A program made the translations under genes and the position numbers. Under the pieces are notes generated by a model. That model was not told the origin of the DNA and did no database searches. It was given only the letters and a program-made list of their open reading frames with translations. Shown here piece by piece: positions 399 through 56,885 of a stretch of DNA of 60,545 bases. Numbering within the stretch: the first letter of the stretch is position 1; the number at the start of each line of letters is the position of its first letter. The stretch is from an uncultured Bacteroidales bacterium (GTDB lineage: Bacteria; Bacteroidota; Bacteroidia; Bacteroidales; Bacteroidaceae). The stretch spans positions 1 through 60,545 of the forward strand of contig CADAJV010000017.1 of assembly GCA_902788275.1 (NCBI GenBank), in the 5' to 3' direction.

Positions 399-2483
399 TT
401 ATTGTTTCAACGCGAAACGATAGTTGGCCCCGATGAGGAAAGTGAAACCTGGCTGAGGCACTGTGCCTATATCGTAGTAGCGATGGGAGGTAAGGTTTTC
501 AAATGAGGCATAGACATCGTAAGTAGGCTTGGTCCAGCGGAGCTTGAGGTCCAGCAGGCAATACGGGCGGTTGGCGCGCTGCACGGCCTCTGCTCCATGA
601 TACTCCAGATGGGTGCCCTCACGCTCCTGCCAGCGGAGATGCCATGTGGCGCTGAGCGAGGAGAAGATGCCGTGCTCCAGCGAGGCCATCACCTTATGGC
701 GCAGATAGTCGAGGGCGTAGTTTGACTGATAGATGGGCGTGTCATCGTGGCGGTGCTGACGGTTATAGAAATAGCTTACGCTGGCAGCACGCAGCACCTG
801 TTGGCCAGGCAGCAGGCGCAGGAGATTGGCTCTGGCCTGCGCCGTTAGCTGATAGATGCTGAGCTTGAAGGCTGTGGAATGGTAGATATCATCAGCCGAG
901 TACATCACCCAGTCTATCATGTCGGTGCCGCGGCGGTAGATGCCGACAACTGACAAGCTGAGCCACGAACCGGTGAAATCGGCGCCCACCTTGAAGGTGC
1001 TGGTCTGCTCGGGCTTGAGACCAACGTTGCCCTCGTTGGTCGGCGACTTATAGTAGAGGTCGGTGAAGGTGGGCATTCGCATCGACTTATTCCATGAGGC
1101 ATAGAGCTTGACGGCCTTGTCTGGGCGATAGCTGATATCGATGCCGGGATAGAAACGGAATTTATCGTCCACAGCACTGTTGCGATTGGCCATCACACCA
1201 GCATTGATAGACCACTGTCTGAGCAACACTGCATGCTCCAGGAAGAGGCTCATATTGGTGCGACTGTCGCGATGGTCGTAGTAGCGGTCGTGATGGTGCT
1301 CTATGCGCACTCGCTGAGCCTCGTCGAGCGGGCGGCCCAGGTTGGAGGACAGTATGTCCTCATGGCGCAGCTCACCGCCAAGGGCCGTTCGTCCGAGCAC
1401 CCACTGGCTGTAGCCGCTGAGGGTAGCAGCCAAGACATCGTTGCGATGGAAGTTCTCGCCGGTCTGAGTGTCCTTGATGAGCTGGAAGTGGTCGAAATTG
1501 CGGGTAAAGGAAAGCGAGGGGGTGAAATGTATGTTGCCGGCAGCAGCATCGCCCTTGAGGGCTGCCATATAGCGCGTGCCCTCCTCCCATTGGTTGGGAA
1601 ACTTGGCGCTATAGAAGGTGTTGGCACCATAGCGTTGCTTGTTGTAGCCAGCCTGCCAGTTGAGGAGCACATTGTCAGCTGTGTAGCGCCCCTGATAGAA
1701 AAGTCGGATGCGGTTGAAATCGCTGTTCTGCACGGCACCGTCGGTGCGCAGATAGTCGCCCGACAAACGATTGCGCCACAGGGCTGTGCCGCCGGTTTTA
1801 CCACTGGCGATATTCGCATTGGCGCCACCGCCGAAGGTGCCGTAGCTGCCGCCTTCTGCATGAATGCCGACCTGAGAGGTAGGCTCTGTGCGAGTAATAA
1901 TATTGATTATGCCATTGAGAGCCTGGCTGCCAAACGTGCGAGCCGATGCTCCGTCAAGAATTTCTATGCGCTCGATGTCTGCAATGGCTACAGGGAAATC
2001 AGCTGCAAGATGACCGGTTTGGGGATTGTTGATGTTGATGCCGTTGAGCATAAAAGTGATTTGGTCGAATGTGCCGCCGCCGAGGGATATGTCGGTCTGC
2101 ACTCCCATGGCGCCGCGCTGTCTGACATCAACATTAGGACAAAGCTTAAGGATGTCGTTGATGGTCTGACATTTGGCATTGTCAATCTCCTGTCGTGTAA
2201 TCACGACAATCTTGCTCCACGCCTTGTCTAACGAGACGGGAAGCTGAGAACCGGTGACCGTGGCTTCAGACAATGCCAAGTCGGAGGTGCTGACTGCATC
2301 CTCCACAATGCGGAGCGAATCAGTGCGGGTAGCCAGGCTGTCGTTGTGAGCCACCATAAGTGTGCTCACTGCCAGCACGCCAATTCTAATTTCGCGCCCC
2401 AGACTGCAGAAGGCAGCGTAGCCCTTGCCGCTAAACTGGCGCCAGGTTACAACCGTGTTCTTCTTTGGTTGGTTTGAAAACAT
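399..2483 (-). CDS. TonB-dependent outer-membrane receptor, BtuB-like
   Basis: A 694-residue gated beta-barrel receptor expected to import a scarce ligand (cobalamin, siderophore or similar) across the outer membrane using TonB energy. The N-terminus carries the basic, WRQFSGKGYAAFCSLGREI-type leader and hydrophobic stretch seen in many Bacteroidales receptors. The plug domain follows at about residues 85-215 (VVITRQEI, a GININNP turn, and IERIEILDGASA.TFGSQALNGIINI). The rest is barrel strands, ending in the typical C-terminal aromatic strand (FTFLIGANYRFALKQ). Length and the TonB plug fit the BtuB/cobalamin-receptor-like class, but the substrate cannot be read from the sequence: no SusD partner or cobalamin riboswitch lies next to it. 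It is transcribed alone and ends at a strong terminator. The start is the ATG whose leader fits best. Confidence 0.85.
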   Translation of the reverse strand: MFSNQPKKNTVVTWRQFSGKGYAAFCSLGREIRIGVLAVSTLMVAHNDSLATRTDSLRIVEDAVSTSDLALSEATVTGSQLPVSLDKAWSKIVVITRQEIDNAKCQTINDILKLCPNVDVRQRGAMGVQTDISLGGGTFDQITFMLNGININNPQTGHLAADFPVAIADIERIEILDGASARTFGSQALNGIINIITRTEPTSQVGIHAEGGSYGTFGGGANANIASGKTGGTALWRNRLSGDYLRTDGAVQNSDFNRIRLFYQGRYTADNVLLNWQAGYNKQRYGANTFYSAKFPNQWEEGTRYMAALKGDAAAGNIHFTPSLSFTRNFDHFQLIKDTQTGENFHRNDVLAATLSGYSQWVLGRTALGGELRHEDILSSNLGRPLDEAQRVRIEHHHDRYYDHRDSRTNMSLFLEHAVLLRQWSINAGVMANRNSAVDDKFRFYPGIDISYRPDKAVKLYASWNKSMRMPTFTDLYYKSPTNEGNVGLKPEQTSTFKVGADFTGSWLSLSVVGIYRRGTDMIDWVMYSADDIYHSTAFKLSIYQLTAQARANLLRLLPGQQVLRAASVSYFYNRQHRHDDTPIYQSNYALDYLRHKVMASLEHGIFSSLSATWHLRWQEREGTHLEYHGAEAVQRANRPYCLLDLKLRWTKPTYDVYASFENLTSHRYYDIGTVPQPGFTFLIGANYRFALKQ

Positions 2484-2554: not shown

Positions 2555-2585
2555 TTTGGTTATTCAAATATAAGTAGTATCTTTG
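2555..2585 (+). promoter_or_regulatory. Consensus Bacteroidetes promoter for the 2590-2752 RNA
   Basis: TTTG at 2555-2558, a 19-base spacer and TATCTTTG at 2578-2585 match the Bacteroidetes primary sigma consensus (TTTG-N19..21-TAnnTTTG) exactly. Start of transcription would fall at about 2590. A minus-strand TATATTTG (2572-2565), suited to the TonB receptor, overlaps it back to back. Confidence 0.75.
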
Positions 2586-2589
2586 CCAT

Positions 2590-2752
2590 GGTTGCATCGG
2601 TCTGATCGGGATACTCGTCATTAAATTTTACTTTTTCCGAGACCGTTTTCCATATTAACGGCATGCCTTCGGGAAACCCGCAATATGGAAGCCCTCAAAT
2701 CCTTTCTTTTCAGGAGTTTCATCACATCCACCGGTGCAACCACCTTTTTTTT
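2590..2752 (+). ncRNA. Candidate small structured RNA of unknown family
   Basis: The 5' end GGTTGCATCGG (2590-2600) pairs over 11 bp (one G-U) with CCGGTGCAACC (2731-2741), closing a multi-branch fold and followed by eight Ts (2745-2752). Inside are CGGTCT..AGACCG (2598-2603 with 2640-2645, extended by CGG/CCG at 2607-2609 and 2637-2639), a 9-bp stem TTCCATATT/AATATGGAA (2648-2656 with 2682-2690) enclosing CGGGAAACCCG, and AAATCCT..AGGA-TTT (2697-2719). The outer stem is intact only on the plus strand: its G-U becomes a C-A mismatch on minus. A consensus promoter sits just upstream. It does not look like tmRNA, RNase P, SRP or 6S RNA as I know them. No plus-strand gene follows, so a free small RNA is more likely than a leader. 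Confidence 0.6.
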
Positions 2753-36331: not shown

Positions 36332-36583
36332 AGTGAGGAGTGAGGAGTGAGGAGTTAGGAGTTAGGAGTGAGGAGTTAGGAGTGAGGAATGCCGCAGGCA
36401 TCGCGAGCGGCTCGTCGGCTGTCGGCGAAGCCGGTGCCGACTTCAAAGAGTCGCGAGAGCGAAGCGGCAATGAGGAGTGAGGAGTTAGGAGTGAGGAGTG
36501 AGGAGTGAGGAGTGAGGAGTTAGGAGTTAGGAGTGAGGAGTTAGGAGTGAGGAGTTAGGAGTGAGGAGTTAGGAGTGAGGAAT
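36332..36583. repeat. GGAGTTAGGAGTGA tandem repeats (family C) with an embedded family A element
   Basis: Degenerate 7-bp words (AGGAGTG / AGGAGTT) fill 36332-36390 and 36471-36583. Between them at 36391-36470 is a family A palindromic element, starting GCCGCAGGCATCGCGAGCGG and ending GAGAGCGAAGCGGC. The same 7-bp words recur inside the coding sequence at 48.79 kb. Confidence 0.85.
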
Positions 36584-46519: not shown

Positions 46520-47489
46520 CAAGAGGCATCTATATCCGATGACTCTCCATGTAAGTGATGATAGGATAATCAAACTTTACTATAAACACATATTGCCCAG
46601 GTGTATGCCGCAAGCCTATCGCACTTGTGATTTTATCAGCAGATAAGAACATGATCCTATACCTCGCTGAAACAGGGAAAACTAAAGCTGACTTAACGAA
46701 ATCTAACGGCGACCTTAGAAATTTTAACGTGGAGATAAAATCAGGAAATGTGGACATAACAAAATCTAATCCCCTTAAAAAAAAATCTAACTCCGTGGAA
46801 AAATAATCTAACTCCGTGGAAAAAAAATCTAAGAGCCTCGAGCTGTCATTTTCAAGGCTTTTAGATTGCGTTTCAAGGCTCTTAGAATTGCCGCCAAGGC
46901 TCTCAGATTTCTTAATGTCGGCCCGCGCCTAAAGAGGCCCAGCCTCTTTCAAGACGGCGCGACCACCGACGAAATCTTCGCGAAGGCACGGGATTAGAAT
47001 GAAAGGTTATAGGTTATTGGTTATAGGTTATAGAGGGAGTTAGAAGGAGTTAGAAGGAGATAGAGGACGATAGTAAATTGAGAATTGAATGCTGAAAGCA
47101 TCGCGAAGGCTCTGTCAGTGGTCGGCGAAGCCGGGCTGACAAAAAAGAGCCTGAGAGCGCAGCGGCAAAGTTGATAATTGATAATTACCCAAGTGATTTG
47201 GTTGCAGATGTAAAGAAGTATGGGGCTTATGACTGCCCTCTTCTATCTTATTACCTTTTTTATTACGCGCGTAAAGAAAAATTGTCGTATCTTTGCGGAG
47301 AGAAAAAGCCCCCGACAAAAAGTTAAGAAGTTAAAAAGTTAAGAAGTTAAAAAGTTAAGTAGTTAAGAAGTTAAGAAGTTAAGCCGATAGAAGGAGATAG
47401 AAGGAGATAGAAGGAGATAAAAGGAGATAGAGGACGTTAGTCTTTCTTCTTTCGAACTTTTCAAATCTGTAAACCGTAAACTGTAAACG
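46520..47489. repeat. 970-base repeat-rich gap
   Basis: Holds family F words (46690-46920: AATCTAACTCCGTGGAAAAA twice, TTTTAGATTGCGTTTCAAGG, AAGGCTCTTAGA), short tandem runs (GGTTATAGGTTATTGGTTAT near 47003; AGTTAAGAAGTTAAAAAGTT at 47320-47380; AGAAGGAGATAGAAGGAGAT at 47393-47430), one family A element (47091-47166) and family D words. TATCTTTG at 47288-47295 is a plausible -7 element for the gene at 47490. No coding region is convincing. Confidence 0.75.
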
Positions 47490-56151: not shown

Positions 56152-56885
56152 GCGAACCCGCAATCATGATAACGGCAGCTGACAAAGCCGAAGGCTTCGC
56201 GAGCGGCTCGCCAATGATCACGCCAACGGCGCGGACTGGCATTAAAGAGCCGCGAGAGCATAGCGACAAAGCCGAAGGCTTCGCGAGCGGCTCGCCAACG
56301 ATCACGCCAACGGCGCGGACTGGCATTAAAGAGCCGCGAGAGCATAGCGACAAAGCCGAAGGCTTCGCGAGCGGCTCGCCAATGATCACGCCAACGGCGT
56401 GGACTGGCATTAAAGAGCCGCGAGAGCATAGCGACAAAGCCGAAGGCTATGCCCAGTTTCTGGAGCAGGTGACATACTACATAGAAGCCTCGCCCCACGA
56501 GGTATCAGTGATGGCCAACATATCTGCAGCCTTACGCGAAACCTTCGGATTCTTTTGGGTGGGTTTCTATCTGGTACGCAACGAAGAACTGATACTGGGC
56601 CCATTTCAAGGCAGTATGGCCTGCACTACCATCAAGTATGGTCGCGGTGTGTGCGGCACAGCATGGCAGAGGAAGCAGAGCATCGTCGTAGCTGACGTGG
56701 AGCAGTTTCCCGGCCACATAGCATGCAGCAGCCTTTCCCGCTCAGAGATAGTAGTGCCCCTCATCAGTGAGGGAGAGGTAAAAGCCGTGCTCGATATCGA
56801 CAGCGACAGCCTCGCCGCTTTTGACGAGACAGACCGCCAGGCACTTGAGCAACTCGCAGCCCTTATTGCCAAGCAGATTTATTGA
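56148..56885 (+). CDS. msrC: Free methionine-(R)-sulfoxide reductase with a repeat-expanded N-terminus
   Basis: A 245-residue GAF-domain enzyme of the fRMsr type that reduces free methionine-R-sulfoxide. The three functional cysteines are Cys159 (SMACTTI), Cys169 (GRGVCGTAW) and Cys193 (GHIACSS); their spacing of 10 and 24 equals that of E. coli Cys84, Cys94 and Cys118. The GAF domain starts near residue 101; typical proteins have only about 15 residues before it. Here residues 12-95 are three 28-residue repeats (DKAEGFASGSPMITPTARTG, then IKEPREHS) made by three in-frame family A elements. The start ATG overlaps the stop of the phosphorylase gene. The next gene, mnmE, begins one base after the stop. 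Confidence 0.88.
   Translation: MSEPAIMITAADKAEGFASGSPMITPTARTGIKEPREHSDKAEGFASGSPTITPTARTGIKEPREHSDKAEGFASGSPMITPTAWTGIKEPREHSDKAEGYAQFLEQVTYYIEASPHEVSVMANISAALRETFGFFWVGFYLVRNEELILGPFQGSMACTTIKYGRGVCGTAWQRKQSIVVADVEQFPGHIACSSLSRSEIVVPLISEGEVKAVLDIDSDSLAAFDETDRQALEQLAALIAKQIY
56181..56446 (+). repeat. Three 84-bp family A units plus a 14-bp partial unit inside msrC
   Basis: Units at 56181-56264, 56265-56348 and 56349-56432 are nearly identical; GACAAAGCCGAAGG at 56433-56446 starts a fourth. 84 is divisible by three and the unit has no stop in this frame. The unit resembles the intergenic element 36584-36667, which has the same 84-bp length. Confidence 0.95.

What the first reader, a model, noticed from the sequence alone, without database searches (positions are those of the whole stretch)
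2590..2752. Stand-alone structured RNA candidate with its own promoter and U-tract
A perfect Bacteroidetes promoter (TTTG-N19-TATCTTTG) ends five bases before a region whose two ends pair over 11 bp and which contains three more stems (6+3, 9 and 7 bp) before a run of eight Ts. The closing stem is intact as plus-strand RNA and has a C-A mismatch on minus, which argues for plus. No plus-strand gene follows. I know no RNA family with this layout.
Basis: partly seen in the sequence, partly recalled or inferred. Interest (0 to 1): 0.8.

Follow-up and report, generated by a model that had tools for sequence, protein, structure and literature searches.

The report
Known Bacteroidales 6S-type RNA gene

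Summary
The claim that no family has this layout is wrong. Window 2590-2747 (+) matches Rfam RF01693, Bacteroidales-1 ("6S-Bacteroidales RNA suggested"), at 67.2 bits against a gathering score of 60. It is the only such hit in its genome. The family occurs in 16 of 19 genomes of the genus and 190 of 201 sampled in the family.

The 12-bp closing stem, left unpaired in Rfam's model, has changes on both sides at 12 of 12 pairs in 64 homologues. A model that includes it hits 21 genomes of the phylum sample outside the order; 20 of these 21 hits contain a 6S-Flavo (RF01685) hit. The two families look like one. Polymerase binding and pRNA templating are inferred; 6S RNA and pRNAs are reported in B. 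thetaiotaomicron (PMC7366714, passages).

One departure: an apical loop motif present in 68 of 75 fetched homologues is replaced in 7, the window and six relatives. Ordinary overall, with one small lineage-specific oddity.

The parts
2555..2558 (+). -33 box TTTG of the sigma-ABfr-type promoter
   Evidence: sequence; 19-nt spacer to the -7 box
2578..2585 (+). -7 box TATCTTTG (consensus TAnnTTTG)
   Evidence: TAnnTTTG within 45 nt upstream in 67 of 75 homologues
2590..2752 (+). Bacteroidales-1 (RF01693) RNA, suggested Bacteroidales 6S RNA, with its U-tract; Rfam match 2590-2747
   Evidence: 67.2 bits, gathering 60
2590..2601 (+). 5' strand of the closing stem P1
   Evidence: 12 of 12 pairs with a change on both sides in 64 sequences
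2730..2741 (+). 3' strand of the closing stem P1
2613..2616 (+). 5' strand (ACUC) of a proposed inner helix; putative downstream-duplex equivalent
   Evidence: aligned with the same letters of 6S-Flavo; folding support in the window itself is low
2714..2717 (+). 3' strand (GAGU) of the proposed inner helix; could instead pair in a 3'-bubble hairpin
2617..2638 (+). 5' side of the central bubble, presumed pRNA template region (inferred)
   Evidence: position relative to conserved blocks; function inferred from other 6S RNAs (PMC8876501, passages)
2697..2713 (+). 3' side of the central bubble, AAAUCC core
   Evidence: CTCAAA in 74 of 75 loci
2639..2696 (+). apical arm: GAG/CUC base, 10-bp stem, CGG/CCG, CC/GG and UUCG loop
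   Evidence: centroid
2662..2665 (+). replaced internal loop, 5' side (CAUG)
   Evidence: family motif present in 68 of 75 loci, absent in 7
2674..2677 (+). replaced internal loop, 3' side (AAAC)
2745..2752 (+). U-tract just after the closing stem (terminator)
   Evidence: sequence; the 12 fetched 6S-Flavo loci have a U-tract at the same place; T-rich by my pattern in 49 of 75 homologues

Best explanation
This is the single-copy 6S RNA gene of a bacterium probably of the Bacteroidaceae (inferred from the record titles of its near relatives), a member of Rfam RF01693. Shown: its own TTTG-N19-TAnnTTTG promoter; a covarying closing stem that starts 4 nt after the -7 box; conserved sequences on both sides of a central bubble; an apical arm; a U-tract after the closing stem. 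Inferred: the RNA imitates a melted promoter, binds the housekeeping sigma-ABfr RNA polymerase holoenzyme, accumulates when growth slows, and is released on nutrient return when the polymerase copies a short pRNA from the 5' bubble strand towards the ACUC block. An inner ACUC/GAGU helix would then open, and its 3' strand may re-pair with AAAUCC of the 3' bubble, as described for E. coli 6S RNA. This last step is the least supported.
For: RF01693 match over the gathering score. Closing stem: 12 of 12 pairs with changes on both sides; whole structure 94.5% of cells paired against 33-43% for slid versions; 0 of 500 shuffles as high on any of the five measures. The second-best Rfam match is 6S-Flavo over 2613-2719, below threshold. 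All 3 genomes outside the order hit by RF01693 (38-41 bits, below gathering) are hit by 6S-Flavo at the same place. Model R1, built with the closing stem, hits 12 of 12 fetched 6S-Flavo loci, and 20 of its 21 hits outside the order contain a 6S-Flavo hit. Those 12 loci carry a closing stem and U-tract outside Rfam's model. RF00013 is absent from this genome, and its 34 below-threshold hits in the phylum sample are in other genomes than those hit by RF01693 or RF01685. The layout agrees with published 6S descriptions (PMC8414754, PMC8876501; passages). 6S RNA and pRNAs were detected in B. thetaiotaomicron (PMC7366714, passages).
Against: No expression, polymerase binding or pRNA could be tested. 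I could not check that the 6S RNA of PMC7366714 is the RF01693 locus. The match is modest (67 bits, against 202.9 for the best relative). The family's apical loop motif is missing. The inner helix is weak: one compensatory sequence in 64 and 16 of 64 mispaired at one position, 2 of 13 pairs with changes on both sides in 6S-Flavo, probability 0.02 in the window itself, and RNAalifold on 74 sequences pairs CUC of that block with GAG of CCGAG instead. The re-pairing got little support: blocking the 5' strand raised the mean probability of the 3' hairpin only from 0.09 to 0.12 over 68 of 75 loci, and in the window it fell from 0.20 to 0.13; the bubble hairpins show no covariation beyond shuffles. 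131 of 198 sampled genomes of the order gave no hit even with R1, and 10 of 30 genomes hit by 6S-Flavo are not hit by R1.
Confidence: 0.87

Rival explanations
1. It is a Bacteroidales-1 RNA, but the family does something other than 6S work, for example binding a translation or ribosomal protein, since in many genomes it lies downstream of infC and rplT.
For: L20 is encoded within the fetched flanks (up to 1.5 kb) in 27 of 75 loci and IF-3 in 26 of 75 (identities by Pfam for one locus). The apical motif GGCGNG[CT] / [GA]ATTAC[AC], not a general 6S feature as far as I recall, is kept in 68 of 75.
Against: 0 of 16 loci of the window's genus have L20 or IF-3 in those flanks, yet the RNA is kept with a promoter, which speaks against a cis role. 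Homology with 6S-Flavo.
Confidence: 0.09
2. A terminator or untranslated leader of a neighbouring gene rather than an independent RNA.
For: The closing stem followed by eight Ts has the form of a terminator.
Against: Both flanking genes are on the minus strand; own promoter; the RNA is kept among different neighbours; strong conservation in the bubble.
Confidence: 0.02
3. Chance secondary structure in a gap between genes, or a decayed copy of the family.
For: Low Rfam score for the family; the minus strand also folds well; covariation within the seven window-type sequences alone is not above shuffles (84 of 500).
Against: Seven genomes, the window's included, keep this form with 99.2% of cells paired; promoter intact; R1 score 117.1 bits, though the window was one of the 64 sequences R1 was built from.
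Confidence: 0.02

Closest known systems
Rfam RF01693 Bacteroidales-1 (6S-Bacteroidales suggested)
   Same: Over the gathering score, end to end 1-179 of the model; conserved ACUC, CCGAG, CUCAAAUCC and GGAGUUUCAUCACAUC blocks; single copy; promoter
   Different: Apical internal loop replaced; only 4 nt between the -7 box and the stem (9 or more in the other loci with a match, L028 and the six near relatives apart); 158 nt of match against a 179-position model
Rfam RF01685 6S-Flavo
   Same: Closing stem, ACUC and GGAGUUU blocks, bubble, apical arm, U-tract; homologous positions hit by both models in other genomes
   Different: 28.8 bits here against a gathering score of 85, so not a member by Rfam's rule; different apical sequence
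Rfam RF00013 6S (E. coli and B. subtilis type)
   Same: Closing stem, central bubble, apical arm, similar length
   Different: No match to the model in this genome; promoter type recognised differs, by inference

Membership tests
RF01693 Bacteroidales-1 | Covariance-model score at or above the gathering score (60 bits) | tested here: met
   67.2 bits, window 2590-2747
RF01693 Bacteroidales-1 | Conserved bubble blocks (CTCAAA, C[CA]GAG, GGAGTTT) | tested here: met
   present in the window; 74, 74 and 71 of 75 loci
RF01693 Bacteroidales-1 | Apical internal-loop motif GGCGNG[CT] with [GA]ATTAC[AC] (conserved in the family, not Rfam's criterion) | tested here: not met
   present in 68 of 75, absent in the window and six relatives
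6S RNA (functional class) | Closing stem, central bubble, apical stem | tested here: met
   closing stem and an apical pairing covary; layout in PMC8414754 and PMC8876501 passages
6S RNA (functional class) | Downstream helix and alternative 3'-bubble hairpin on release | tested here: inconclusive
   possible by sequence; no covariation beyond shuffles for the hairpin; weak folding support
6S RNA (functional class) | Binds primary-sigma RNA polymerase and templates pRNAs | not testable with these tools
   pRNA evidence reported for the 6S RNA of B. thetaiotaomicron (PMC7366714, passages)
RF00013 6S | Match to the Rfam model | tested here: not met
   0 matches in the window's genome
RF01685 6S-Flavo | Covariance-model score at or above 85 bits | tested here: not met
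   28.8 bits

The most novel reading that the evidence does not exclude
In one small clade of Bacteroidales, mostly from rumen samples by their record titles, the 6S RNA has swapped an apical internal loop that is kept in all other fetched homologues, and has almost no 5' leader. If that loop is a contact for sigma region 4 or for an unknown partner protein, this clade has rewired how its 6S RNA is recognised, and the loop marks a lineage-specific layer of 6S control not known from E. coli or B. subtilis.
Probability: 0.18. Interest if true: 0.45.

Novelty: new member of a known kind. Interest (0 to 1): 0.22.

Why it matters
It shows that this striking stand-alone RNA is already catalogued, and it sharpens the catalogue: neither Rfam model, Bacteroidales-1 nor 6S-Flavo, includes the closing stem among its pairs, and with it the two look like one Bacteroidota 6S RNA. 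A model with the stem, built partly from hits in the same sample, found 67 of 198 genomes of the order against 48 with Rfam's. The conserved apical loop, and its replacement in one clade, is a testable entry to how sigma-ABfr polymerase recognises 6S RNA.

Tried and rejected
Unknown RNA class: rejected by the Rfam match. Minus-strand RNA or protein: rejected by the model strand, the promoter, the lack of an ORF and the indels, although the minus strand folds well. suhB/mmgR and SNORD41 matches in the permissive scan are far below their gathering scores. RNAalifold on a MAFFT alignment of 74 sequences gave the closing stem and part of the apical arm, but a local CUC/GAG pairing instead of the inner helix. 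A pRNA-driven hairpin switch: tested by blocking 11 nt of the 5' strand in 68 of 75 loci (7 skipped because my motif search failed on them); mean 3'-hairpin probability 0.09 to 0.12, up in 16 and down in 3; with a control block up in 7 and down in 7; in the window itself down from 0.20 to 0.13. I count that as no real support. Covariation in the seven window-type sequences alone is not above shuffles (84 of 500). The apical motif was first counted with a stricter pattern (both halves in 65 of 75) and then loosened by single bases after seeing L018, L022 and L031 (68 of 75). Viral contigs with the altered loop: 0 found. Whether the joining of the two Rfam families is in print: searched 'Bacteroidales-1', '6S RNA' with Bacteroidetes and 6S-Flavo, 'Dissemination of 6S RNA' and 'RF01693'; the likeliest paper, Wehner et al. 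2014, is not held, so I make no claim of novelty for it.

Full report
What is there. Window 2590-2752 (+) holds a small RNA gene. Its promoter is TTTG (2555-2558), 19 nt, TATCTTTG (2578-2585), which fits the consensus quoted in PMC7366714 (passage). The ends 2590-2601 and 2730-2741 pair over 12 bp and eight Ts follow at 2745-2752. The fold is better than shuffles (z -3.58, 1 of 200 as good). The minus strand also folds well (z -2.61).

What it is. Rfam 15 gives RF01693 Bacteroidales-1, "6S-Bacteroidales RNA suggested", 67.2 bits against a gathering score of 60, over model positions 1-179. The genome, 86.79% complete, has one copy and no RF00013 6S. RF01693 is found in 16 of 19 genomes of the genus, 190 of 201 sampled in the family, 48 of 198 sampled in the order and 6 of 247 in the phylum sample, 3 of them over the cut-off. 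The three genus genomes without it are 78-86% complete. The family was listed by Weinberg et al. 2010 (PMC2864571, passages) and annotated in Porphyromonas gingivalis (PMC5771137, passage).

Structure. I fetched 75 loci, the best-scoring ones of three searches and not all hits, and aligned 64 after leaving out 11 near-duplicates. A structure with closing stem, inner helix, GAG/CUC and CCAC/GUGG has 94.5% of cells paired, 17 of 25 pairs with changes on both sides and 183 such cells; 0 of 500 shuffles reach any of the five measures, and slid versions pair 33-43%. The closing stem has 12 of 12 pairs with changes on both sides, the apical CCAC/GUGG 4 of 4. Rfam's own model leaves the closing stem unpaired. 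GAG/CUC never varies and says nothing. The inner helix has one compensatory sequence, and 16 of 64 are mispaired at one position; RNAalifold chose a local CUC/GAG pairing in its place. The bubble hairpins show no covariation beyond shuffles. So the closing stem is firm and the bubble's inner pairing is open.

Link with 6S. The next Rfam match at this place is 6S-Flavo, 28.8 bits, below its threshold of 85. Outside the order, all 3 genomes hit by RF01693, each below its cut-off, are hit by 6S-Flavo at the same place. A model built from my alignment with the closing stem (R1) hits 12 of 12 fetched 6S-Flavo loci and 0 of 4 loci with weak RF00013 matches. In the phylum sample it hits 24 of 247 genomes; 3 are in the window's family, and of the 21 others 20 contain a 6S-Flavo hit. 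6S-Flavo itself hits 30 of 247, 12 over its cut-off; ten of the 30 are not hit by R1. The 12 fetched 6S-Flavo loci carry a closing stem and a U-tract just outside Rfam's model, with changes on both sides at 5 of 12 closing pairs and 2 of 13 inner pairs (one row cut short). R1 finds 67 of 198 genomes of the order, including all 48 found by RF01693 (comparison of the tables); its E-values are rough, and it was built partly from these hits.

Mechanism. Published 6S RNAs have a closing stem, a central bubble and an apical arm, imitate an open promoter and template pRNAs. In E. coli, opening of the downstream helix lets its 3' strand form a hairpin in the 3' bubble (PMC8876501, passages; PMC8414754, passages). 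This RNA has letters for the matching parts: ACUC 2613-2616 with GAGU 2714-2717 as downstream helix, and AAAUCCU 2697-2703 able to pair with AGGAGUUU 2712-2719. In B. thetaiotaomicron the 6S RNA and two classes of pRNA were detected (PMC7366714, passages). That their locus is RF01693 is my inference. My folding test of the switch did not support it: mean hairpin probability 0.09 to 0.12 in 68 of 75 loci, and in the window 0.20 to 0.13, with an inner-helix probability of 0.02.

What is unusual. 68 of 75 loci have GGCGNG[CT] and [GA]ATTAC[AC] in the apical arm; the 7 that lack both are the window and L070-L075 (a stricter pattern gave 65 of 75), all in the window's genus. They have CAUG/AAAC between CGG/CCG and CC/GG instead. 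Of the other nine genus loci, five (L061, L062, L063, L067, L068) have both the glycosyltransferase and the S9 peptidase gene found beside the window's RNA, a sixth (L069, a short locus) the glycosyltransferase, and three (L064-L066) neither; so for most the two forms are very likely the same gene. All 7 also have only 4 nt between the -7 box and the stem, as does L028; the other loci with a TAnnTTTG match have 9 or more, and 3 of 75 have no match in 70 nt. The altered loop was found in 6 records of the genome collection. In viral contigs it was found 0 times. Truncated B. subtilis 6S-1 RNAs with short arms still work in vitro at about tenfold lower affinity (PMC8876501, abstract), so the change need not be damaging.

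Verdict. Real, and a member of a known family. The 6S function is likely but rests on homology. Interest is low, apart from the loop swap and the apparent unity of two Rfam families.

Noticed in passing
L076-L087 and L001-L075: Rfam's Bacteroidales-1 and 6S-Flavo, shown without a clan, appear to be one family with a shared closing stem that neither model pairs.
   Followed up: yes
L034:3-614 and 964-1332 (+), and similar loci: L20 is encoded near the RNA in 27 of 75 loci and IF-3 in 26 of 75; neither is found in the flanks of the 16 loci of the window's genus.
   Followed up: partly
G260 (contigs C219 and C214): One genome of the family sample gives 3 RF01693 matches where the others listed with a match give 1; duplication, strain mixture or assembly artefact not examined.
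   Followed up: no
genomes of family labels f136, f153, f147 and f156 in the phylum sample: 34 of 247 genomes, outside the window's class, give RF00013 6S matches, all below the gathering score; possibly a divergent 6S that Rfam covers poorly.
   Followed up: no
G477:C1:1337817-1338013 (-): R1 hit of 39.6 bits in a genome not among the 6S-Flavo or RF01693 matches; candidate 6S RNA of another family.
   Followed up: no
window 56181-56448: 84-base tandem repeat, 3.2 copies, 98% matches.
   Followed up: no
window 36332-36581 and 47317-47431: Clusters of short tandem repeats of 7 to 16 bases, such as AGTGAGG, TGAGGAG, AAGTTAAG and GATAGAAGGA.
   Followed up: no
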